IMG/VR virus record: IMGVR_UViG_3300050014_000073
Location: 1 to 64,000 of that record
Source of the DNA: a virus
Length of the DNA: 64,000 nucleotides
Strand: one strand, 5' to 3'
Shown: piece after piece, positions 39,721 to 63,771 of the stretch
Layout: each line of letters begins with the position of its first letter
How positions within the stretch are numbered: the first letter of the stretch is position 1
Position numbers and translations under genes: made by a program
Notes under the pieces: model-generated
The model's input: only the letters and a program-made list of their open reading frames with translations
Database searches by the model: none
What the model was told of the DNA's origin: nothing

Positions 39721-41259
39721 GTGGCTGCTCTCGCTCAACCTCCGATCAAGAAGCAAAAGTGGATACCGAGGAAGGAATTTCTCAAGCAGATCCACGACCC
39801 TGCTTTTCAAGCACCTAAGGTTCAGTACATCGACTACGAACCGAGGGGCAACGTCAAGGAGATGTTCCGTCATAAGGAACGTGAGATTATCCTTGCAGGT
39901 CCGGCTGGAACAGGTAAGAGCCGAGGGGCTCTTGAGAAGCTTCATTGGATTTGTGAGAAGTATCCTCGCGCTCGCTGCCTCATGCTGCGCAAGACTCGTC
40001 GCAGTTTGACGCAGTCGGGTATTATTACGTATGAGCAGCGTGTTCTTCCCGCTCCCAACTACGTTCCGTTCCACGGTGGCGAACAAGCCTACATCTATCC
40101 GAACGGGAGCATCCTAGCAGTAGGAGGCCTTGACGATCCGAACAAGCTGTTCTCTTCGGATTGGGATGTCATCTTCGTCCAACAGACTGAGGAGTTGAAC
40201 TTAGGGGAATGGGAGAGCTTGCTCCGGTCTCTTCGTTCATGGAAGGTTCCATATCAGCAGGTCATTGGTGACTGTAACCCTGGGCCTCCTACCCATTGGA
40301 TTCTGTCCCGCAAGTCAGCGGGGTCCTGTACCTTTTTAGAGACGCGTCATGAAGACAATCCGGAACTGTGGAACGGCTACTGCCCGATGCACGGGAAGAT
40401 CGAACCGGAGTGGACCTGTCGAGGACGCGAATACATCTCGGTGCTTGACGCCTATACAGGAGTCCGGTTCCTTCGTCTCCGCAAAGGGATCTGGGCAGCT
40501 GCTGAAGGGATTGTCTATGAAGACGTCTGGGATGTAGCGGTTCACGTCATTGATCGCTTTGTCACAACTCCTTTAGATAAGGACCAGGTTCCTAAGAGCT
40601 GGCCACGCTATTGGGGCGTTGACTTTGGCTATACGAACCCCTTCGTCTGGAGCGCCTTTGCGGAAGACCCTGACGGACGTCTGTTCCGGTACAAAGAGAT
40701 CTACCGGACGAAGACTCTTGTTGAGGACCATGCCAAGCGGATTCTAGAAGTGACGCAGGACGAACCTAAGCCTCAGTGGATTGTCTGCGATACGGATGCT
40801 GAAGACCGCGCTACTTTAGAGAAGCATCTTGGGATGAAGACAGTCGGAGCTTGGAAGTCCGTCAGTCCTGGAATCCAGGCGGTCTCAACGCGCCTCAAGA
40901 TTGCCGGCGACGGGAAGCCTCGGTTGTTCTATCTTAAGAACTCTGTCGTGGACGTTGATCCTTTGCTCCTGGCGGAACATAAGCCAACTTGCACTGAAGA
41001 AGAGTACCCAGTATATGTTTGGGACACATCGAACAACCGGAAGCGCGGTGAAGAGCCTGTAAAGGAATTTGACCACGGGCAAGACTTGAGCCGGTACGTC
41101 ATAACTAAAAAAGATGACACTTCCGGCAAGAAGCCGAAGTTCTTTGCGATTGGTTCCGTGACGAAGACGGGTGGTTCAGGAGAAGGTGGCAGCTTGGCTC
41201 GTCCTTCGCCTTGGAGAATGGGTGGAGGAATCGGATTGGGAACGCGGTGGGGACAGTGA
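39721..41259 (+). CDS. terL: terminase large subunit
   Basis: 512 residues, GTG start. The N-terminal ATPase has Walker A AGPAGTGKSR and Walker B DVIFVQQTEEL. The C-terminal RNase H-like nuclease has GVDFGYTNP, CDTDAED and a late Asp. It cuts and pumps concatemeric DNA into the prohead through the portal at 51610. The gene order small subunit, HNH, large subunit is standard. Confidence 0.92.
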   Translation: MAALAQPPIKKQKWIPRKEFLKQIHDPAFQAPKVQYIDYEPRGNVKEMFRHKEREIILAGPAGTGKSRGALEKLHWICEKYPRARCLMLRKTRRSLTQSGIITYEQRVLPAPNYVPFHGGEQAYIYPNGSILAVGGLDDPNKLFSSDWDVIFVQQTEELNLGEWESLLRSLRSWKVPYQQVIGDCNPGPPTHWILSRKSAGSCTFLETRHEDNPELWNGYCPMHGKIEPEWTCRGREYISVLDAYTGVRFLRLRKGIWAAAEGIVYEDVWDVAVHVIDRFVTTPLDKDQVPKSWPRYWGVDFGYTNPFVWSAFAEDPDGRLFRYKEIYRTKTLVEDHAKRILEVTQDEPKPQWIVCDTDAEDRATLEKHLGMKTVGAWKSVSPGIQAVSTRLKIAGDGKPRLFYLKNSVVDVDPLLLAEHKPTCTEEEYPVYVWDTSNNRKRGEEPVKEFDHGQDLSRYVITKKDDTSGKKPKFFAIGSVTKTGGSGEGGSLARPSPWRMGGGIGLGTRWGQ

Positions 41260-51609: not shown

Positions 51610-53193
51610 ATGGCACTCACTGACAGAATCGTGAAGTCCTTTAGTGGGCCAGTCTATTCTGGGACCGGTCAGGAGTTTACTCCGATTCCGGGAAGCGAGT
51701 ACAGTGCTCTTCCTAAGACTCCTCCGTTTTCGGAAATTGGCGTTTCTGGAGTTCTCAGGACTCGCGGCGTCGGGTATCTATACGAGGAATGGTTAGCTTC
51801 TCTATCCACTTCTCGAGGCAAGATGGTCTACCGTGAGATGCGGGACAACGACGCGGTTATTGGGTCGATGTTCTTCGCTCTCGAAATGATTCTCCGCCGC
51901 GCTCAGTGGCATATGGAACCCGGACCCGGAAAGAAAGGCGACGACTACGGACAGTTCATTGATGAGTGCTTCAACGATATGAGCCATACGTTCGAGGACT
52001 TCATTGCTGAGTGCGTCAACATGTTTGTCTTCGGGTATTCACTGTTCGAGACAGTCTACAAACGCCGCCAGGGACCCAAAGGAAAGAAAGCTTCCAAGTT
52101 CGACGATGGGTTGATCGGCTGGAGGAAGTTTGCCCCTCGCGCTCAAGAGAGCATCCTCTACTGGATTTGGGATGACGAAGGAGGACTGCAAGGTGCCGTT
52201 CAGCTTGCTGCTCCCGATTACCATACCGTCCCGATCCCAATCTCGAGATTGCTTCTCTTCCGCACAACTTCTGTCAAGAACAACCCTGAAGGGCGGTCTC
52301 TTCTCCGTAACTGCTTCCGAAGCTGGTTCTTCAAACGCCGTATTGAAGAGGTTGAGGGGATTGGTATTGAGCGCGACCTTTGCGGCATTCCAGTATTGTA
52401 CGCAAGCGCTGAAGCTCTCGCTGCAATGGGAGGACAAGCTGCTGCTGAGAAGTTGGTTAGTAACATCCGAGTTGATGACCAGGCCGGAATCATCCTCCCG
52501 TTGGCGTTTGACGAGAAGGGGAATCAGCTTGTTAAGATTGAACTGATGCGGACTGCCGGTCAGAAGCAGATGAATCCGTCGGAGACAATCGGACGTTATA
52601 ACTCCGACATGTTGAATACTATGTTGGCAGGGTTCGTTCAGTTCGGACAGACGTCAGTTGGATCTCGGGCGCTTCACATGAGCGCCACACAGATCTTCAG
52701 TCTGGCGATCACGGCATTCATGGACTCAATTGCAGCAATCATCAACCGTATTGCGATTCCCCGGCTGATGGCAATGAACTCGATGGACCTCTCGTCCGCG
52801 CCAAAGCTGGTTCCTGGTGAAATCGGGGTTCGTGATCTCGAAGAACTGAGTCAGTATGTTTATCAGTTGAGTCAGTCAGGTCTGACGTTCTTCGACAAGG
52901 AAACTACCAACTACCTTCGGAAGACTGCACGCCTGCCTGAAATGCCTGAGGACGACGAAGCCGGACCGGAAGAGAATCCGAATCAGGCTCCTCCTCCCCA
53001 ACTGACTCCTGATCAGCAAGCTCAAGCACAAGTACAAGGTGAACCTCCAGATCCCAACGCACCTCCAGCTCCGGCAGCTCCCAGTGCTGCGTCTCCGAAA
53101 ACACCTCCGGCGCTGAAGCCGAAGAAGCCGATTGCGGCAACTCCGCCTTCCAGTCAAGCTTCTGCTGGTGAAAAACTTAGGCAAACCGCGTGA
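51610..53193 (+). CDS. portal protein
   Basis: 527 residues. REMRDNDAVIGSMFFALEMI, the clip/stem-like PIPISRLLLFRTTS with NPEGRSLLRNCFRSW, and a helical crown region followed by a Pro/Gln-rich tail are the pattern of Mu gp29/DUF935-type portals. Twelve copies form the channel for DNA entry and exit and dock TerL. Confidence 0.85.
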   Translation: MALTDRIVKSFSGPVYSGTGQEFTPIPGSEYSALPKTPPFSEIGVSGVLRTRGVGYLYEEWLASLSTSRGKMVYREMRDNDAVIGSMFFALEMILRRAQWHMEPGPGKKGDDYGQFIDECFNDMSHTFEDFIAECVNMFVFGYSLFETVYKRRQGPKGKKASKFDDGLIGWRKFAPRAQESILYWIWDDEGGLQGAVQLAAPDYHTVPIPISRLLLFRTTSVKNNPEGRSLLRNCFRSWFFKRRIEEVEGIGIERDLCGIPVLYASAEALAAMGGQAAAEKLVSNIRVDDQAGIILPLAFDEKGNQLVKIELMRTAGQKQMNPSETIGRYNSDMLNTMLAGFVQFGQTSVGSRALHMSATQIFSLAITAFMDSIAAIINRIAIPRLMAMNSMDLSSAPKLVPGEIGVRDLEELSQYVYQLSQSGLTFFDKETTNYLRKTARLPEMPEDDEAGPEENPNQAPPPQLTPDQQAQAQVQGEPPDPNAPPAPAAPSAASPKTPPALKPKKPIAATPPSSQASAGEKLRQTA

Positions 53194-54199: not shown

Positions 54200-55201
54200 A
54201 TGCCTCTCTCTTTCATCCGAAAAGCCAAAGCCACCGACGCAGTACTGCAAGCTGCGTCGCGTATGGAAGCTTCGCTGGCGCAGGCTTTTCTGGACGCCGT
54301 CGACGCGATGCAGGACGACGTTGCTCTTACCAAGCTCTCTGCTGCTATCGAAGCTGGTGACATGAACCAGGCTCTGGCGATTATGGCAGTGGATCAGGGG
54401 TTCGTACAGGCGCTTCAGGGGAAGGGACTTGAAGCCGGAGTGAAATCATTCCGAGATGCCGTTCAAGCAACGTTTGCAGCGGGAGCTCAAGCAGCTATTA
54501 CTCAACTCCCGAAATCCGTATCATTGGATCTGGCATTCAACTTGATGAGTCCCGAAGCGATCAATCATCTTGAGACATACTCGTTCAGCCTCATCCAGCA
54601 GATCTCCGAACAGACTCGTGAAGCAATTCGACAGACGATCTTGCGGGCATTCAAAGAGGGTGGTCATCCTTACGAACAAGCGCGCAGCATTCGGAACGTC
54701 ATTGGACTGACGGCGCGACAAGAGCAAGCTGTAGCGAACTACGAAGCTTCGTTGTCTGGGAACTCTGCTACACGAGACGCCCTGACTCGTGCTCTCCGAG
54801 ACGGAAGGTTCGACTCAACGGTTGCCCGTTCAATCACCAACCAGACTCCGCTGTCTCAAGCCCAGGTTGACAAGATGGTTGACCGATACCGAAGTCGGTT
54901 CATTGACTATCGGGCAAAGACCATTGCGAGAACAGAGTCCGTGCGAGCTTCAAATCTAGGACAACGAGAAGTCTGGCGTCAGGCAAAGCAACAGGGATTG
55001 ATCGAAGAGGATCAGAAGCGGGTCTGGATCACTTCAGGCGACGACAAAACTTGCGATGACTGCGCCGGTCTTGACGGAACTGAAGTCGGTCTTGATGAAG
55101 AGTTTGAGGATGGAGTCATGGACCCACCTGACCCCCATCCGGATTGCCGGTGTACTACTGCTCTATCAATTAAGAAACGGGACTCATTACGAGTTGCATA
55201 A
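54200..55201 (+). CDS. minor head protein (Mu gpF/SPP1 gp7-like)
   Basis: 333 residues. Helical N-terminus, then FIDYRAKTIARTESVRASN, WITSGDDKTCDDCAGLDG and the terminal DPPDPHPDCRCTT, the hallmark of the phage Mu F-like family. These proteins sit inside the prohead at the portal and help DNA ejection. Position right after the portal is standard. Confidence 0.88.
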   Translation: MPLSFIRKAKATDAVLQAASRMEASLAQAFLDAVDAMQDDVALTKLSAAIEAGDMNQALAIMAVDQGFVQALQGKGLEAGVKSFRDAVQATFAAGAQAAITQLPKSVSLDLAFNLMSPEAINHLETYSFSLIQQISEQTREAIRQTILRAFKEGGHPYEQARSIRNVIGLTARQEQAVANYEASLSGNSATRDALTRALRDGRFDSTVARSITNQTPLSQAQVDKMVDRYRSRFIDYRAKTIARTESVRASNLGQREVWRQAKQQGLIEEDQKRVWITSGDDKTCDDCAGLDGTEVGLDEEFEDGVMDPPDPHPDCRCTTALSIKKRDSLRVA

Positions 55202-55718: not shown

Positions 55719-55726
55719 TTCCTATG

Positions 55727-55760
55727 GAGTCCCGTTTCGGCGGGACTCCGGTTCTTTTAT
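55727..55760 (+). terminator. rho-independent terminator
   Basis: GGAGTCCCG, a short TTTCGG loop, CGGGACTCC, then GGTTCTTTT. A strong 9-bp GC stem with a T-rich tract right after the 55718 stop. Confidence 0.8.
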
Positions 55761-55765
55761 CTGGT

Positions 55766-56149
55766 ATGACTTGTCTTATCTGCTCAGGGAAATGCGTGAA
55801 GAACGGGCGCTGGCCTAATGGCGGACAACGCTGGAAGTGTAAGTCGTGTCGTAAATGGTACAGTGACGAACTCCATCCCATTCCAGGTTTCTACCTGCGA
55901 CCTGGGCAGATTGTGACATTGAAAAGAAACTTCCTTTATGGGATTTCCGTTCAGGCAACAGTCGCAGAGTACCAGTATAATGACAGGACTATCCTGAAGT
56001 TCTTTCGCTATTGCCATTCTATCGGAATGAAGCGCAGTCACTGTCCTTGCGGCCGACCAGCAGGACATCGTGCCTGTTGTAGGGAAATGAGACAGATTCA
56101 CGACCATCTCACGAAAAGGAAAGGAAAACGAACATGCCAACTAGCTTAG
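55766..56149 (+). CDS. zinc-ribbon/HTH protein (IS1 InsA-like N-terminus)
   Basis: 127 residues. CLICSGKCVKNGRWPNG then WKCKSCRKWY matches the zinc ribbon of InsA-type transposase proteins. A possible HTH (SVQATVAEYQYNDRTILKFF) and a second Cys cluster (CPCGRPAGHRACC) follow. The start is placed after the terminator; the upstream in-frame ATG lies inside it. Probably a DNA-binding protein, not a transposon, as no partner ORF is present. Confidence 0.6.
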   Translation: MTCLICSGKCVKNGRWPNGGQRWKCKSCRKWYSDELHPIPGFYLRPGQIVTLKRNFLYGISVQATVAEYQYNDRTILKFFRYCHSIGMKRSHCPCGRPAGHRACCREMRQIHDHLTKRKGKRTCQLA

Positions 56150-56311: not shown

Positions 56312-56749
56312 ATGCCCCTCGCTCCACTGAATGAACCTTACGCTTCCGATCCTACTCTACTCTTGGCTCTCTGTATCTGGAGAGAAGCAAGAGGGGAGTC
56401 GCATGATGCCAAGGTCGGAGTTGCGTCCGTAGTCATGAACCGTTGCGTTATGGCCCCCGCTCAAGGCTTCAAGAGGTCCGTAACTGGGAATATTCTCCAT
56501 CCGTGGGCCTTCAGTTCGTTTATGGAAGGTGACCCGAATGCAGTGAAGTATCCTGCGAGTGGGGATTCCTCCTGGACTGATTCTCAATTGGTTGCTCAAA
56601 ACGAAATGCGGAATCATCTCAGTACTGATCCAACGGACGGAGCCATCTTCTATCACAGTAACGCGGAAGCTCTGCCTCCTCCTAAAGATTGGGGAAACGT
56701 GACGTTCACTGGAACCATCGATCATCTCCATTTCTTCAAGATTGCCTAA
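56312..56749 (+). CDS. cell-wall hydrolase (SleB/Hydrolase_2-like endolysin)
   Basis: 145 residues. LLLALCIWREARGESHDAKV, GVASVVMNRC and later FYHSNAE are the pattern of SleB-type lytic enzymes with the catalytic Glu in the EARGE motif. No signal peptide, so it would need the holin next door. Degrades peptidoglycan at lysis. Confidence 0.85.
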   Translation: MPLAPLNEPYASDPTLLLALCIWREARGESHDAKVGVASVVMNRCVMAPAQGFKRSVTGNILHPWAFSSFMEGDPNAVKYPASGDSSWTDSQLVAQNEMRNHLSTDPTDGAIFYHSNAEALPPPKDWGNVTFTGTIDHLHFFKIA

Positions 56750-56750
56750 C

Positions 56751-57242
56751 ATGGGAACGTTGGCAGAGTACCTGGTTGAGAAGTACAGTCCGGATCAGTC
56801 TCGCGCTGCGAATGGTGAGTTTGGTGAAGGTAGCATTGAGTTCAAGCCTTCTGCCCGGATGCAACGAGCCCTGGAATCGCGTGTTCCATGCGGAGTTGAA
56901 AAACAGCGTATCGCAGATGAGCAGGAACGGATAGTGAGCAAGGCCGTTGGTATCCCTCGTACGAAAGATAACTCTGCGTTCGACATGCGCAATGATGAAG
57001 TTGGTCTTGAACTTAAGTGTATGCAAGACAGTCGAAATGGCAAAATTACGATGTCAAAGACTGCCCTAGGTCGTAAGCTTGCTGAATCACAAGCTGAGGG
57101 GTTGAAGACTTACACCATCGTTGCAGATAAGCGTTCAGGAGGTGGCGGGACGCGTTACTACATCAAGTCCGGTCTCGGTTCATTTCACGTAAGCAATATG
57201 ACTCCCACAACGCTGTCTGAAATACGGAGCATGGTTCGATGA
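56751..57242 (+). CDS. hypothetical protein, 163 aa, nuclease-like features
   Basis: N-terminus YSPDQSRAANGEFGEGS is a pattern seen in phage head and scaffold proteins. The middle VGLELKCMQDSRNGKI, with Asp and ELK spaced apart, recalls PD-(D/E)XK nucleases, but this is only suggestive. Overlaps the next gene by 4 nt. Confidence 0.5.
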   Translation: MGTLAEYLVEKYSPDQSRAANGEFGEGSIEFKPSARMQRALESRVPCGVEKQRIADEQERIVSKAVGIPRTKDNSAFDMRNDEVGLELKCMQDSRNGKITMSKTALGRKLAESQAEGLKTYTIVADKRSGGGGTRYYIKSGLGSFHVSNMTPTTLSEIRSMVR

Positions 57243-60200
57243 GCATCGAACTCACAAACGAAACTGGTTTGCTTGGGCAGGTGGCTAGCAATGCAGGCTA
57301 CTCTGATCTCATCGAATCTGCGAAGGGCATCCCGGTTCTTAAGACTTTCTTTCAGCAGGGTGCTACTGAAGATGTTCCTCCTGTTGTTGAAGCTCTCAAG
57401 AAGCTGGACGGTCCGAAAGACGTTCTCGAAACGGCATTCTCTCTGGCGAAGCTGATGGAAGGACAGGAGCTGGTCATCATAACGGATGGAACCTCAGACG
57501 ACGAAGTAGAAAAGGGTGGTCCTGGTTCCGGACCTCATGGACAAGGCGGGAACAAGGTTGTTGCTTGGATTCAGCATCCAGCTTTGGGTGTTCGTTCAAT
57601 AGGGAGATCTGGGAATTCATCAGCAGTACGGATTCCTACTCATGCGGAAGTTCTCGATCAAGCGCGAAAAGATACAGGGACGAATGTTAAGTACGACGCG
57701 CTAAATCGCGGCTATGCAACTGTTCGCGGAGGCTTTGCGAACGTTGTGACTCATACTCAGGATTCGTCTAGGGCTCTCGTTGATCGCCCTATGCTGGATC
57801 ACTCCGCCGTTGAAGAGCATCTGAAGAATACTTACGGAGCGAAGGACGCAATCTGGTTGACTGGGAAAGTCGCTGAGGCAGAGAACGAGGAGATTAACAA
57901 GATGAAGCTCTCGGTCATTCACTTCGGTTCCGATGCAGACCTCCCAGCTTCGGTTCGCAATGCTATTCCTTCGTTCGCTCTGTCAGTCTTCCGCAATGCC
58001 TTCAATGAAGCGACAGGCAGCGGCAAGTCCGAGATGAACGCCTATATCAAGGGATACCGGGCTCTTGAAGACGCGGGCTATGTTTATGATGACGCAGGTA
58101 AATGGTCAGTGAAGAAGGACGGTCCTACTCTTGGAACGGTTCACATCAATCGACCTCTTGGTAGAGTACTCCCGAAAGATCAGAATGATCCTTTTGATGA
58201 GGCAATTGATGACGTTCTGCATCCGAAGAAGAGAATCAAAAAGATTGACCTCTCCCTTCCGTTGTTTGAGCATCTCATGATCGAGTGCGGGGATTTCACC
58301 CTGGGTGGTGACGTCGTGATGAAAGAAGATCAGATCACGGTGGACGTTCCTCTGTTCATTCGGCTTCTCGAACTTGCCCGCGAAGACATCAAGACCGATC
58401 CTCCAATCCACGAGGTCACCGAAAAGATCACTGAGCTGATGGGCGACAAGACCTGCCTTGACATGGACGACTACGAAAAGATCGTATCCGTATTGAAGCG
58501 GAAGAAGAAAGAAAAGGACGATCCAGGAACCGAGGACGTTGACATCCCTGACGACATGTTCGTCGAGAACCCTCCTGCTGCTGGTCAGTCTACTACTTTG
58601 AAGAAACGTATCAGCGGCAACTCTGATATCGCACTCAACACTAAGGGTCAGAAACTGGCCGACGCACTAGGGAAGCAGATTGCTCTTCGGGGCGGTCTCG
58701 ATATTTTGTATTCCAGTCCTCTTCCCCGAGCTGTCGAAACAGCCGACGCAATTATCGAAAATGCCAACACGAGTATCAAACGGGCTTCCCCGCTTCCAGC
58801 TCTTTGCCCTTGGCACCTAGGTGAGTATGAAGGACGGATGCCGGATGCTGTTCATAACCTAATCGACGGCTACATCGCCCATCCTGACGAAGCTCCTCCT
58901 GGAAAGTGTGCCGATGGCTCTCCATCCGAGTCATTCAACTCAGCTAAGAACCGGCAGCTTTCTTGCTTGAAGAAGCTCTATGAAGACTGGGCTGAACAGG
59001 ACCCCACTCTCAAGATTGGTGTCGTGATGCACTCCCGGGGGATGGAACTCTTACAGTCCTGGGTTGACGAAGATTGCCCCGAAGACTTCGACCTGAAAGA
59101 CTCTGATCTGGTTCATCCCGATGATCCCGAACACGCTACTATGCTTCGCTGGCACAAAGACAATATCAAGGACGTGGATTTGGACGATGATGCTCCGCTG
59201 ACTCCTGGAGTATATCTCATTCTTCACAGCTTGACTGATGACGATACTGATGAGGGAAATCCTGAACTGACGAAGAGGCAGGAGAGAGAGGAGGCGATCC
59301 ATTCCGTAGTTAAGAAATACCTCCCGCCTCTTGAGGTCCATCAAGCTGCAAAACGCGCGTACGACGTGGGAATGGCAGTCATTGATATCACAGCTCCTTT
59401 GGCTGAAGGTGAAGGGCTTCCTGTTTCCGAAATTCAGAAGATTGCTGATCACTTCGCTGAGACAACCTCTATTACCGAGCCGCAGACAACTCGTGATGCA
59501 TGGGGCGGGAAATACGCAGCTAAGTGGGCAGCACGCGTCTTCAAGAAAGCTGCTAAGGACTTTCCAGAATGGCAAGGCATCGATTTGGACGGGACGTTAT
59601 GCGAACCAACGGAACCTTATGATTCCACGAAAATCGGAAAGCCTATTGACGCGATGGTTGCACATGTCAAGTCTCTCCTCGCTGAAGGGAAGACGATCAA
59701 AATCTTCACCGCTCGTGTTGCTGACGATCCTGACGGTAAAGTCAAAGCTGCTATCGAAGCGTGGTGCAAAAGTCACCTCGGTCAAGTCCTACCTGTTACG
59801 AACGAGAAAGATCCCGGAATGATGGATCTCATCGATGACCGGAGCCACCGACCAGAAGAGGTTACCAAAGCTGGTGACGGAGTCATGGTTGCTCTATGGC
59901 CTGACCCTGATACCGCCAAACAGATTGCTGTAAAGGACGGTGAGTCTTCTGACGATCTTCATATCACGTTGGCGTACTTCGGTAAGAGTGTTGACGCGGA
60001 TAAACTCCCGTTCTTGGAAGCAGCTCTCAAACACTTCGCTGAAACTCACTCTCCAATCAAGCTTCAGCTAGGTGGCTTGGGACGGTTCCCGGCCACTCCT
60101 TCGTCAGACGGTCAGGACGTTGCCTACCTAGGAGTTCACTCTCCCGAAATCCAGAAGTTCCGTCAAGACCTGGTTGACAGCGTAAAGGGAATGGGAGTTG

Positions 60201-60826
60201 ATCCGAAAGCCAACTTCGGTTACAATCCGCACATGACGTTGAAATTCGTTGCTCCTCATGCGCCGCATCTGCTTCCTACTCCTGACTCGAAGAACTTGAA
60301 GTTCACTGAAATCGTGCTCAGTGTCGGAACGGAAAAGAAAGTCTTTCCTCTGACCGGTCTGAAAAGCGCAGTCACGAAGAATACTGATGAGTTCGAAATC
60401 TCTGGCGACATCATCAAGGTTGACAAAGACCGGCAAATGGTTTGGGGATGGTTTTCAATTGTTAGTGTTAATGGAAAGCCATTCGCTGATTCCCAGGGAG
60501 ACGTAATCACGCCCGAAACAATCGAGGAGAGCGCATACGACTTCGTTCTCAATGCTCGTAAGGGTGGTGAGATGCATGAAGCAAAGAAGGACGGTGATGT
60601 TGAAGGTGTAGGACGCCTTATCGAATCGGTAGTCTTCACGGATGAGAAACAGAAGGTAATGCAAGACAGCCTCCGTGAACAGGGGATTGATGCAGTACTC
60701 GCGCTGGGATGTGTGGCATGGTGGGGCGGAATGCACATAGACGATTCTGACACCTGGGATAAGGTAAAGACTGGGAAGCTTCGTGCCTGGTCAATAGGCG
60801 GGCGTGGAAAAAGAGCTTCTCTGTAA
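57239..60826 (+). CDS. 1195-aa multidomain head protein with XkdF-type protease
   Basis: Order of parts: unknown N-terminus; ChaB-like (LPASVRNAIPSFALSVF, near residue 235); histidine-phosphatase-like region (LYSSPLPRAVETADAI, VVMHSRGMELL) without the RHG motif; HAD phosphatase (GIDLDGTLCEPTEPYD, IFTAR); 2H/LigT phosphoesterase with HITL and HMTL; and a C-terminal XkdF-like prohead protease (WGWFSIV, MHEAKK, CVAWWGG). Lies before the scaffold-like gene, where prohead proteases belong. Such a fusion may be cut after assembly, leaving enzymes in the capsid. Confidence 0.8.
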   Translation: MSIELTNETGLLGQVASNAGYSDLIESAKGIPVLKTFFQQGATEDVPPVVEALKKLDGPKDVLETAFSLAKLMEGQELVIITDGTSDDEVEKGGPGSGPHGQGGNKVVAWIQHPALGVRSIGRSGNSSAVRIPTHAEVLDQARKDTGTNVKYDALNRGYATVRGGFANVVTHTQDSSRALVDRPMLDHSAVEEHLKNTYGAKDAIWLTGKVAEAENEEINKMKLSVIHFGSDADLPASVRNAIPSFALSVFRNAFNEATGSGKSEMNAYIKGYRALEDAGYVYDDAGKWSVKKDGPTLGTVHINRPLGRVLPKDQNDPFDEAIDDVLHPKKRIKKIDLSLPLFEHLMIECGDFTLGGDVVMKEDQITVDVPLFIRLLELAREDIKTDPPIHEVTEKITELMGDKTCLDMDDYEKIVSVLKRKKKEKDDPGTEDVDIPDDMFVENPPAAGQSTTLKKRISGNSDIALNTKGQKLADALGKQIALRGGLDILYSSPLPRAVETADAIIENANTSIKRASPLPALCPWHLGEYEGRMPDAVHNLIDGYIAHPDEAPPGKCADGSPSESFNSAKNRQLSCLKKLYEDWAEQDPTLKIGVVMHSRGMELLQSWVDEDCPEDFDLKDSDLVHPDDPEHATMLRWHKDNIKDVDLDDDAPLTPGVYLILHSLTDDDTDEGNPELTKRQEREEAIHSVVKKYLPPLEVHQAAKRAYDVGMAVIDITAPLAEGEGLPVSEIQKIADHFAETTSITEPQTTRDAWGGKYAAKWAARVFKKAAKDFPEWQGIDLDGTLCEPTEPYDSTKIGKPIDAMVAHVKSLLAEGKTIKIFTARVADDPDGKVKAAIEAWCKSHLGQVLPVTNEKDPGMMDLIDDRSHRPEEVTKAGDGVMVALWPDPDTAKQIAVKDGESSDDLHITLAYFGKSVDADKLPFLEAALKHFAETHSPIKLQLGGLGRFPATPSSDGQDVAYLGVHSPEIQKFRQDLVDSVKGMGVDPKANFGYNPHMTLKFVAPHAPHLLPTPDSKNLKFTEIVLSVGTEKKVFPLTGLKSAVTKNTDEFEISGDIIKVDKDRQMVWGWFSIVSVNGKPFADSQGDVITPETIEESAYDFVLNARKGGEMHEAKKDGDVEGVGRLIESVVFTDEKQKVMQDSLREQGIDAVLALGCVAWWGGMHIDDSDTWDKVKTGKLRAWSIGGRGKRASL

Positions 60827-60899
60827 GAAATTTCTGGGATTCGCCCACCAGCCTGCGCCTCACGGGGACGGACAAGGATGGGCCACCCTTAAGATAGAC

Positions 60900-61274
60900 A
60901 TGACTGATTTATCCATCGTACTGACGGCAGCTGGCATGGCGTCAGCCGCGACCGCTTGGGTGTCAATCCAAGTTACCCGCTCCGCTGCCGCTGCACGTAA
61001 AGAAGCATGCCGTGTAGCTAAAGAATTACAGCACTTCAAAGAGCACTTGCCGGTTTACCTGAATGGCACGTATCGCCGCACGCCAGAATGTGAACTCTTG
61101 CACAAGTCTGTTGAGAAACAATTTTCTTCTCTGCCTGCATTACTGGCTGGGTCGGAAGAGTTCCGCCGCCTTATAAGCGTTTCTGTATCAGACGGCATCG
61201 TTTCTGTATCAGACGGCATCTGGGCTTCAAAGGCTAGGCGGCATTCGCATGGGGTGTCAGATGAAACTAAGTAG
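60900..61274 (+). CDS. small membrane-associated protein, 124 aa
   Basis: N-terminal hydrophobic helix (LSIVLTAAGMASAATAWVSI), then charged helical sequence. Contains a perfect duplication VSVSDGI-VSVSDGI from a 21-nt tandem repeat. Start at 60900 is the first ATG after the large gene; an earlier GTG overlaps it. Function unknown. Confidence 0.5.
   Translation: MTDLSIVLTAAGMASAATAWVSIQVTRSAAAARKEACRVAKELQHFKEHLPVYLNGTYRRTPECELLHKSVEKQFSSLPALLAGSEEFRRLISVSVSDGIVSVSDGIWASKARRHSHGVSDETK
61179..61220 (+). repeat. 21-bp perfect tandem duplication
   Basis: GTTTCTGTATCAGACGGCAT plus C, twice in a row, in frame within the 60900 gene. A recent slippage or duplication. Confidence 0.9.
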
Positions 61275-61830
61275 AGTTTGGATCACCATGCTGTGCGTCT
61301 TGCTTTTGTGGACAGTGGTGTCCTTTGCAGAATCAAAAGTCGAAGTTGACCCCCGCGCCAAGTTGGCTGCTTCCGAATCCGCCCGAGCACAGGCGTTGCA
61401 AGAGAAAGCATCTCTGTCCGCCGCCATAGTGCGGTTAAACAAAAGCCAATCCGTTACAAGGACAGCTTCCCAGGATGCTGGACTTGCCCAAGACACAGCA
61501 GAGAGCACTGCCCTTATTATTCAAAAAGCGGCAGCCGATGCTAGTTCGGCAGCAGTTCTCGCTGAGATTGAGGCAAACCGATTCAATAGCAATGCAATGG
61601 CGCTGATTGGTGTGCAGGCCCTTGTCTTATTGGGAATATTAGGAGGCTTTATAAACAGCGCATACTCATCTTCACGTGATCACAAGTGGGCTATGGATGC
61701 CACTGCCCGGACGGAAAAGCAAGTCCAGGAAACGCACTCTGTTATGAGGGCAGTGGAGAAGAATACAAACTCCATGGTTGAAAAAGATGCAAGCGTCGTC
61801 TTACAGGGAAGGATTTACTGCGGGGTCTAA
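61261..61830 (+). CDS. membrane protein with coiled coil, 189 aa
   Basis: Signal or anchor MKLSRVWITMLCVLLLW, Ala-rich coiled coil, a second TM (MALIGVQALVLLGILGGF) and a helical tail. Spanin-like or other envelope role is possible. Overlaps the upstream gene by 14 nt. Confidence 0.55.
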   Translation: MKLSRVWITMLCVLLLWTVVSFAESKVEVDPRAKLAASESARAQALQEKASLSAAIVRLNKSQSVTRTASQDAGLAQDTAESTALIIQKAAADASSAAVLAEIEANRFNSNAMALIGVQALVLLGILGGFINSAYSSSRDHKWAMDATARTEKQVQETHSVMRAVEKNTNSMVEKDASVVLQGRIYCGV

Positions 61831-61850
61831 AGAGTGAGAGGAGGACAACA

Positions 61851-62117
61851 ATGATTTCTAAACTTACGGCCAAAAAGAAAGCAGCGGCAGTGAAATTGAA
61901 GTTGAAAAAGCTTGTTGCTGTGCAAGAGCACATTCGTTTGGAGCACGAAGCTGTGGTGAAAGACATTGAAGAGGTTGAGGTTGCGCTCCACAACCACGAA
62001 ATCCAACAAGAGGCAGATGAACCGGAACCTGTGATCATAGAAAATGATCCTGTCATACAGGAGAAGCCTGTTGTTCTGGAACGCTCGCGGTGGCAACGAT
62101 TTCTGGATTCGTTTTGA
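61851..62117 (+). CDS. small coiled-coil protein, 88 aa
   Basis: Lys-rich then Glu-rich helix (KLTAKKKAAAVKLKLKKL, EAVVKDIEEVEVAL) with an acidic tail. Strong ribosome site GAGAGGAGGACAAC. Function unknown. Confidence 0.55.
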   Translation: MISKLTAKKKAAAVKLKLKKLVAVQEHIRLEHEAVVKDIEEVEVALHNHEIQQEADEPEPVIIENDPVIQEKPVVLERSRWQRFLDSF

Positions 62118-62148: not shown

Positions 62149-63771
62149 ATGCCTCAGTCACTCAGCGAACTTCGGGTCAACGAGATTTCATTAGTTGACG
62201 CCCCGGCCTGCCGCCAGGTAGTCGATGGGAAGAAGATCCCGAGAGCAACTGTTGCGATCTGGAAACGAGACTCTTCCAACTTTGATGATGTTCTCAAAGC
62301 CGCCAAGGGTGTCAAGTTCCTGATCGGTTCCAAGGATGACGTCTCTAAGGTCCAGTCTGTCGTATTCGACGCCGCTCAGTGGAACGAGACTTCTGCTAAG
62401 AAGTGGCTGACGGACAACATATTCAAAGCAGAGACGATGGACAAGACGGAGAAAACTCTGCGGTTCCGTCAGGAGGACGCAGGACAGTTCACTCGGTTCA
62501 CGGTTGTGGACTCAGGTCAGTTCCAGAAAGCTGAGGCTGAGGAGTGGGACGACAAGGACGAGACTTGCAAGGCAGTCGATGGGAAGACGTATGACGGGAC
62601 GTCTTATCCAAAGAGCGACTTTGCCTACACTCCAACGGACACACCATCCGATTGGAAACTACGACTTACGAAAACTCCAGGTGGCAGGCCCGACGCTGGT
62701 ATTGTTGGCGCGGCGGTAGCTGCTCTGGGAAAAGGATTCCGGGGGAAGAAAGTCATTATTCCGGCCGACGCGCTCCCCGGCGTGAAAGCCAAGGTCAGTG
62801 CCGCATGGCACAAAGCAAACCCGGACCGTAAGGAAGAAGAGCTTCCTCCGATCCTCAAATCCGAACAAGGAGAAAATAACACCATGACTCTAGCCGAATT
62901 GGAGACGAAGGTCACCAAGTTGGATGAGAACGTCGTGTCTCTGACTAGCGAGCGCGATGTTCTGAAAGCCGAGAACGCCTTGGTTCTCAAGATGTCGAAG
63001 AAGGAGCGCAAGCTCTACGCTTCGATGGACGAGGCCAAGCGCAAAGACTACATGACTGCCGACGAACAGAAGCGCAAAGCGCTCCTCGACGGTGCGCAGT
63101 CCCAGAAACGCCAGAAGAAGCTCTGTGACACAATGGATGAAGCCACCAAGGGCGCATTCGAGAAAGCAGGGCCGAAGGAACGCGCTACGATGCTGGCTGA
63201 CGCCGACGCAAAGTGCAAGGCAGCGAAGGCCGGCAAGAAAAAGTCGGGTTCCAAGTCAGTTCCCAAGCCGGGCGATGCTGATTTCGATCCTGACGGTGAC
63301 GATGACAACGACAGTGGTGATGACGAGGCAACCAAGACGCTGACCAAGAAGCTTGCCGCTGCCGAAGACAAGATCGCCAAGAACGATGCTCAGTTGGAAG
63401 TGATGACCAAGCGCGACCGGCTGGTCAGCTTCACCAAGCGGGCTGAATCCGAACTGCCTAACACTCCCGGAACGCCGGAAGAGAAGGGTGACATTCTCAT
63501 GAAGCTGGCAGACAGCTTCGGGGAGAAGTCCGAGACTTTCACGAAGATGCTCTCGCAGTTGAAGAAAGCTGACGAGGCTTTCAAGAGCAGCTTCTCTGAA
63601 ATCGGAAAGACCGGTGGCAACATCCCGGCAGCGGCAGCTTGGATGGCCAAAGTCGCGGAGATTCAGAAGCGCGACAACATCAGTGAGGGGCAGGCTTCGT
63701 TGAAAGCCTATGAAGAGGCTCCCGATCTGGTCATGGACTACGACCGCCAGCGTCCGGCGATGCGGGTCTAA
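62149..63771 (+). CDS. scaffold-like head assembly protein, 540 aa
   Basis: N-terminus LRVNEISLVDAPACRQV resembles the processed or XkdF-type head domain. Residues about 240-400 are a long charged coiled coil (ELETKVTKLDENVVSLTS), there is an Asp-rich linker (DPDGDDDNDSGDD), and a helical C-terminus. Position after the protease and before a decoration-like gene fits a scaffolding protein. Confidence 0.65.
   Translation: MPQSLSELRVNEISLVDAPACRQVVDGKKIPRATVAIWKRDSSNFDDVLKAAKGVKFLIGSKDDVSKVQSVVFDAAQWNETSAKKWLTDNIFKAETMDKTEKTLRFRQEDAGQFTRFTVVDSGQFQKAEAEEWDDKDETCKAVDGKTYDGTSYPKSDFAYTPTDTPSDWKLRLTKTPGGRPDAGIVGAAVAALGKGFRGKKVIIPADALPGVKAKVSAAWHKANPDRKEEELPPILKSEQGENNTMTLAELETKVTKLDENVVSLTSERDVLKAENALVLKMSKKERKLYASMDEAKRKDYMTADEQKRKALLDGAQSQKRQKKLCDTMDEATKGAFEKAGPKERATMLADADAKCKAAKAGKKKSGSKSVPKPGDADFDPDGDDDNDSGDDEATKTLTKKLAAAEDKIAKNDAQLEVMTKRDRLVSFTKRAESELPNTPGTPEEKGDILMKLADSFGEKSETFTKMLSQLKKADEAFKSSFSEIGKTGGNIPAAAAWMAKVAEIQKRDNISEGQASLKAYEEAPDLVMDYDRQRPAMRV

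What the first reader, a model, noticed from the sequence alone, without database searches (positions are those of the whole stretch)
57239..60826. 1195-residue capsid protein carrying phosphatase and 2H phosphoesterase modules before a prohead protease
One frame joins ChaB-like, histidine-phosphatase-like (RHG missing), HAD, 2H/LigT and XkdF-type protease regions. If the protease cuts the chain in the prohead, soluble enzymes would be packaged and injected. 2H phosphoesterases can degrade cyclic nucleotides used by CBASS or Thoeris-type defence, or repair RNA ends, so this could be an injected anti-defence load.
Basis: partly seen in the sequence, partly recalled or inferred. Interest (0 to 1): 0.75.

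Follow-up and report, generated by a model that had tools for sequence, protein, structure and literature searches.

The report
Phage head protease carrying enzyme cargo
A phage gene next to its capsid genes makes one long chain of enzyme modules ending in the protease that matures the capsid; comparison with relatives shows the modules are swapped as cassettes behind short conserved peptide 'headers', which suggests cargo loaded into the virus head, although packaging, cutting and any anti-defence role remain untested.

Summary
The 1195-residue frame at 57239-60826 is real. It sits between portal/MuF genes and the scaffold/major capsid genes of an 83-kb virus record. It joins: an N-terminal domain; the octapeptide KGGPGSGP with a module; a ChaB-like domain; a histidine-phosphatase fold; a 'WGG' domain; a HAD phosphatase; a 2H phosphoesterase with both HxT motifs; and an XkdF-type (S78_2) prohead protease.

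The general idea (multi-enzyme head proteins, packaged and injected) is known as 'polyvalent proteins'; 2H-protease fusions already occur in cultured Arthrobacter and Microbacterium phages.

What looks new is the cassette structure. A 56%-identical chain from another phage differs by whole modules, and all three header peptides in the pair stand at the left edge of a private insert. KGGPGSGP recurs in many unrelated head-region chains, encoded by 76 different DNA words in 78 cases, so selection acts on the peptide. Homology between related chains stops at headers 2.5 times more often than chance. A second header (YNPDQPRDEHGRW) behaves alike. The phosphatase lost its RHG motif; an invariant 'LILHxLT' strand at its other end suggests circular permutation, unproven. 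Cleavage, packaging and activity are untested.

The parts
57239..60826 (+). 1195-aa head polyprotein (whole gene, stop included)
57239..57496 (+). N-terminal domain (residues 1-86), shared with 2H proteins of related phages; predicted folded (pLDDT 74-93)
57512..57535 (+). header peptide KGGPGSGP (residues 92-99), in a low-confidence linker 84-133
57536..57883 (+). module behind the header (residues 100-215); absent from L215, present at the C-terminus of a portal-MuF chain in L118
57902..58168 (+). ChaB-like domain (222-310)
   Evidence: (below cut-off)
58256..58513 (+). unnamed domain 340-425 ('VPLFIRLLELAREDIKTD'), also in a 735-kb phage record and in protease chain L021
58574..59263 (+). 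histidine-phosphatase fold without N-terminal RHG (446-675); invariant YLILH663xLTDDD at its C-terminus
59306..59578 (+). unnamed 'AWGGKYAAKWAARV' domain (690-780)
59570..59869 (+). HAD phosphatase domain (778-877), DLDGT 782-786; absent from L215
59864..60373 (+). 2H phosphoesterase (876-1045), HxT at 908 and 998, LigT-like fold
60374..60823 (+). XkdF-type S78_2 prohead protease (1046-1195), H1113 and S1185 kept in relatives
56742..57242 (+). neighbouring gene opening with header-2 variant KYSPDQSRAANGEF; its body is fused to the phosphatase chain in G031 and to the portal-MuF chain in L118 (possible PD-(D/E)xK nuclease by eye)
51610..53193 (+). portal
54200..55201 (+). MuF minor head protein
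56312..56749 (+). cell-wall hydrolase (Hydrolase_2)
62149..63771 (+). scaffold-like head protein starting with 'LRVNEISLVDAPA', which looks like the detached end of the protease-scaffold unit (inference)

Best explanation
It is a polyvalent head protein: an XkdF-type prohead protease whose N-terminal side has gathered cargo modules (phosphatase fold, HAD, 2H and others). Short conserved header peptides mark the left edge of exchangeable cassettes. Most likely the chain enters the prohead with the protease and scaffold, the protease cuts some of the unstructured linkers when the head matures, and freed modules stay with the DNA and are ejected into the next cell. There the 2H (with HAD) acts on 2',3'-cyclic or 2'-5' phosphates, either healing RNA ends cut by host toxins or removing nucleotide signals. 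Shown: the anatomy, module exchange, peptide-level conservation of headers, intact 2H and protease motifs. Inferred: cutting, packaging, ejection, substrate.
For: Domains. Head-gene context. Same modules as separate genes in G023/G031, with a stand-alone protease at 61% identity. L215, 56% identical, differs by whole modules, and all three headers in the pair stand at the left edge of a private insert; one L215 insert is an ADP-ribosyltransferase. KGGPGSGP lies in the longest frame in 118 of 128 places vs 23 of 43 for the reversed-motif control, p=1e-7. S78_2 in 20 of 50 header records vs 0 of 50 controls; MuF 19 vs 4. 78 header copies, 76 DNA words. Homology ends near headers 59 times vs 23.6 expected, never reached in 2000 shuffles. 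Pfam tally of header chains: MuF, S78_2, portal, zeta toxin, NUDIX, ART, RelA_SpoT and others. Linkers under pLDDT 50 between modules. Precedents: PMC5512222, PMC9503650, PMC9024508.
Against: No protein-level data exist. Match starts are not enriched at headers. Header 2 lies 2-4 residues from the N-terminus in mycobacteriophage and Nocardia phage head proteins, where cutting would do little; that favours a tag over a cleavage site. Several modules of this chain (HAD, 2H, 690-780 domain, protease) have no header. 26 of 50 header records show neither S78_2 nor S78, though most are fragments. The full-chain model is weak (pLDDT 57, pTM 0.33).
Confidence: 0.6

Rival explanations
1. Assembly-only chain: the modules are parts of the scaffold/protease unit (interaction or spacer domains, some catalytically dead), removed with the scaffold and never delivered.
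For: The protease is normally made with a scaffold; the phosphatase lacks its RHG motif; ChaB-like and unnamed domains have no known enzyme activity.
Against: Modules are swapped between relatives and placed on portal-MuF chains. Header chains carry ART, zeta toxin, NUDIX and RelA_SpoT, typical effectors. 2H and HAD motifs are intact.
Confidence: 0.2
2. The enzymes act in the producing cell late in infection (for example RNA repair or signal removal) and are joined to the protease only for co-expression.
For: Genes for 2H proteins also stand alone near head genes (Mycobacterium Tonenili, Gordonia DalanDe).
Against: Fusion to the protease recurs in phages of Arthrobacter, Microbacterium and many metagenome contigs, and the protease is expected inside the prohead.
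Confidence: 0.15
3. The headers are only flexible linkers or chance glycine-rich stretches.
For: They lie in disordered regions and are rich in Gly/Pro/Ser.
Against: Exact octapeptide with Ser in 126 of 133 hits vs 31 of 55 in control, Lys in 97 of 101, synonymous codons scrambled, homology breakpoints. A second unrelated sequence, QPRDEHGRW, does the same.
Confidence: 0.2
4. The 2H module is an anti-CBASS or anti-Thoeris nuclease of the Acb1 kind.
For: 2H fold; the relative's 2H (L207) matches Acb1 weakly (20.1 bits, cut-off 27); Foldseek lists Acb1 7t26 at E 3e-3; proposed for polyvalent 2H domains (PMC5512222).
Against: No Acb1 match for this protein. LigT is by far the better fold match.
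Confidence: 0.2

Closest known systems
Polyvalent proteins (Iyer et al. 2017, PMC5512222)
   Same: Several unrelated enzymatic domains in one chain of a portal-terminase phage; assemblin-like peptidase always at the C-terminus; 2H domains fused to head proteins, proposed to act on RNA or defence nucleotides.
   Different: The paper stresses zincin metallopeptidases; ChaB, histidine phosphatase and XkdF are not named in its text; header peptides are not among the passages I read.
2H-protease fusions of Laroyevirus (Arthrobacter phages Edmundo, Wheelbite gp18) and Microbacterium phage ValentiniPuff gp7
   Same: 2H directly before the capsid maturation protease; the gene follows MuF in the head operon.
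   Different: About 370-390 aa, only 2H plus protease, no phosphatase, HAD or headers; annotated as 'RNA ligase', 'aldolase' or protease.
T4 internal proteins and P1 DarB with capsid targeting sequences (PMC9024508)
   Same: Head-loaded proteins delivered into the host; a short N-terminal peptide directs loading (T4 internal proteins are also cut by the prohead protease, from general knowledge).
   Different: No sequence relation to the headers was tested; there cargo is separate proteins, not fused to the protease.
Acb1 anti-CBASS nuclease (PMC9117128)
   Same: 2H fold with HxT/HxT tetrad.
   Different: No match to the Acb1 model; nearest fold is LigT.
MuF-fused toxins
   Same: Effector modules fused to a head protein; some header chains here are MuF chains.
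   Different: In this phage MuF is a separate gene; the carrier is the protease.

Membership tests
Polyvalent proteins | two or more domains of unrelated activity in one chain | tested here: met
Polyvalent proteins | encoded with portal/terminase head genes | tested here: met
Polyvalent proteins | packaged and injected with DNA | not testable with these tools
   needs virion proteomics
XkdF-type prohead protease (S78_2) | profile match above curated cut-off | tested here: met
   61 bits vs 24
XkdF-type prohead protease (S78_2) | conserved His and Ser kept | tested here: met
   H1113 (GGEMHE) and S1185 (LRAWSIGG) kept in L215, L201, L297; their catalytic role is general knowledge
XkdF-type prohead protease (S78_2) | cuts head proteins during maturation | not testable with these tools
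   needs protein work
2H phosphoesterase | two HxT motifs and LigT-like fold | tested here: met
   H908, H998; 5ldm E 1e-7, TMt 0.64
Acb1 | match to Pfam Acb1 model PF23474 | tested here: not met
   no match at E<=1; relative L207 below cut-off
Histidine phosphatase branch 1 | profile and fold | tested here: met
   68 bits vs 21.7; VIA Z 13
Histidine phosphatase branch 1 | catalytic RHG at the N-terminal strand | tested here: not met
   canonical RHG is present in L297 and L300
HAD phosphatase | DxDGT motif and family match | tested here: inconclusive
   DLDGT present; PHROG matches but no Pfam match
MuF polymorphic toxin | MuF domain in the same chain | tested here: not met
   MuF is a separate gene, 54200-55201

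The most novel reading that the evidence does not exclude
KGGPGSGP and YNPDQPRDEHGRW are a general, so far undescribed peptide code of tailed phages: each header marks a protein or module as prohead cargo and is read by the maturation protease or scaffold (as a docking tag or cutting site). This lets phages build injectable multi-enzyme loads by inserting header-module cassettes into any head gene. In addition, the phosphatase module is a circularly permuted histidine phosphatase.
Probability: 0.35. Interest if true: 0.85.

Novelty: new variant of a known kind. Interest (0 to 1): 0.6.

Why it matters
If the headers are loading or cutting signals, a plain text search would reveal the injected protein load of many uncultured phages, and would point to new early-infection effectors and anti-defence enzymes. 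It would also offer a short portable tag for loading foreign proteins into phage heads of non-T4 type.

Tried and rejected
(1) Sequencing or assembly error: rejected, a homologous chain exists in another metagenome. (2) Header as DNA recombination site: rejected, 76 DNA words in 78 copies and both serine codon families used; the two copies in this phage also differ in DNA. Left at about even odds. (5) No relatives in bacterial genome contigs. (6) No PADLOC match. (7) tblastn of header 1 against cultured phages found nothing, but the low-complexity filter may hide it. (8) No paper holding GGPGSG together with phage in the held library.
Full report
OBSERVATION. The frame 57239-60826 is an ATG-started ORF of 1195 residues whose start overlaps the stop of the gene before it. 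The window is part of an 83,140-base virus record. The neighbourhood is a head operon: terminase 39721-41259, portal 51610-53193, MuF 54200-55201, cell-wall hydrolase 56312-56749, then this chain, then a scaffold-like gene 62149-63771 and, beyond the window, the major capsid gene at record position 64287-65309.

ANATOMY. Pfam gives His_Phos_1 (454-607), 2H (906-1009) and S78_2 protease (1058-1192) above cut-off and ChaB below it. HAD is supported by PHROGs and by 45-50% identity to stand-alone phage HAD proteins. Both 2H HxT motifs are present, as are the conserved His and Ser of the protease. AlphaFold of the whole chain is weak (pLDDT 57, pTM 0.33) but shows a well-predicted N-terminal domain (1-83), a well-predicted 2H, and linkers below 50 at 84-133, 295-368, 425-475, 663-690, 776-803, 851-879 and 1042-1054. 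Other stretches, including the phosphatase and parts of the protease, are also poorly predicted in that model. Foldseek places the 2H with E. coli LigT (E 1e-7), ahead of viral 2'-5' phosphodiesterases, Usb1 and Acb1.

RELATIVES. 2H directly fused to the capsid maturation protease is already present in Laroyevirus (Arthrobacter) and ValentiniPuff (Microbacterium) phages and in many metagenome contigs. In records G023 and G031 the modules of our chain are separate genes: ChaB-phosphatase-WGG in one (phosphatase to WGG 51% identical), the N-terminal domain with 2H and a zeta-toxin-like kinase in another, and the protease alone (61%) in a third. In L118 the module behind our header sits at the end of a portal-MuF chain. 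L215 is a 1328-residue chain with the same backbone.

CASSETTES. Comparing our chain with L215: ours alone has KGGPGSGP plus about 115 residues after the N-terminal domain; L215 alone has KGGPGSGRYPAGSG plus about 125 residues between phosphatase and WGG domain, and KYSPDQPRDDHGRF plus an ADP-ribosyltransferase module between 2H and protease. All three headers in the pair thus stand at the left edge of a private insert. HAD, private to our chain, has no header.

HEADERS IN GENERAL. A second copy of KGGPGSGP lies in a small gene behind the capsid gene of the same phage. The octapeptide is read in the longest frame in 118 of 128 cases versus 23 of 43 for the control, p=1e-7. Of 50 header records 20 encode S78_2 and 19 MuF, versus 0 and 4 of 50 control records. 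The controls are not matched for head genes, so this shows a head-gene association rather than dependence on this protease. Four further header records match the related S78 family. Among nonredundant chains 78 copies use 76 DNA words, with serine in both codon families: the constraint is on the peptide. Where related chains stop matching, the stop lies within 25 residues of a header 59 times against 23.6 expected, above all 2000 shuffles (maximum 45); match starts are not enriched. So headers stand where a shared left part ends and a variable right part begins. Pfam domains in 84 header chains include MuF 12, S78_2 11, portal 6, zeta toxin 3, NUDIX 2, ADP-ribosyltransferases, RelA_SpoT and VanY. 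Several chains repeat the header every 70-240 residues. The second header, QPRDEHGRW, found in 43 stretches, also has 8 of 42 records with S78_2. Its consensus peptide searched against cultured phages returned 16 records, all weak (E above 1) and all in genes annotated, in at least one record version, as capsid or head maturation protease, of mycobacteriophages and one Nocardia phage; there the motif is at the very N-terminus. Those proteins have no Pfam protease domain, so their annotation is doubtful. An N-terminal position speaks for a tag rather than a cutting site.

THE PHOSPHATASE. In four homologues (ours, L203, L215, L216) the N-terminal strand with RHG is missing and a C-terminal strand 'YLILHxLTDDD' is invariant; in two others from protease-linked contigs (L297, L300) the canonical RHG is present and that strand is absent. 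The domain model (pLDDT 75) aligns with phosphoglycerate-mutase-like phosphatases at Z 13; in many rows model residues 12-19 to about 212 already reach the usual C-terminus, leaving this strand (218-223) over. This fits a circular permutation, but the sequence null test was inconclusive and coordinates were not seen.

MECHANISM. The best reading is a polyvalent head protein whose own protease frees modules inside the maturing head. Anatomy and exchange are shown; cutting, packaging, ejection and substrate are inferred. Function of the 2H/HAD pair: RNA-end healing or removal of nucleotide signals; the data do not decide.

KNOWN VERSUS NEW. Polyvalent proteins (PMC5512222), NUDIX fused to the capsid-processing serine peptidase and 2H fused to head proteins (PMC9503650) cover the concept. 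The header peptides and their link to cassette exchange were not found in the held literature (and the papers read); I cannot exclude a description elsewhere.

Noticed in passing
L008:5389-11536 (record about 68888-75035): Within the structural operon lie several consecutive genes that read like DUF115-type and glycosyltransferase enzymes, between tail genes; possible glycosylation of virion or DNA.
   Followed up: no
window 55724-56149: Small gene with a zinc-ribbon start (CLICSGKCVKNGRW...CKSCRKWY) like an IS1-type transposase N-terminus, inside the head operon.
   Followed up: no
L203:2909-5785 (-): MuF chain with two copies of FNENQPRDEYGRW, each before a different module (one ADP-ribosyltransferase-like by eye, one with a HEMGH metallopeptidase-like motif).
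   Followed up: partly
L207:7606-9282 (+): N-terminal domain plus 2H plus header 2 plus zeta-toxin kinase in one chain of a related phage.
   Followed up: partly
L216:1624-4737, residues 423 and 818; L202:111-2069 (-) residue 499: A possible third header class, W(V/I)T(V/I)NGxHVxI, at module starts.
   Followed up: partly
L028, L041, L064, L069, L086 and L008:2296-2718: Small proteins share an N-terminal peptide 'M..LTTLLL.DAV(E/K)KGGPGSGP', which looks like a targeting leader.
   Followed up: partly
L321-L324: Mycobacteriophage and Nocardia phage 'capsid maturation proteases' are basic 212-257 aa proteins with no Pfam protease domain; the annotation may be wrong.
   Followed up: partly
window 62149-63771: The scaffold-like gene begins with 'LRVNEISLVDAPA', resembling the usual end of S78 proteases, as if protease and scaffold had been split by inserted genes 60804-62117.
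   Followed up: no
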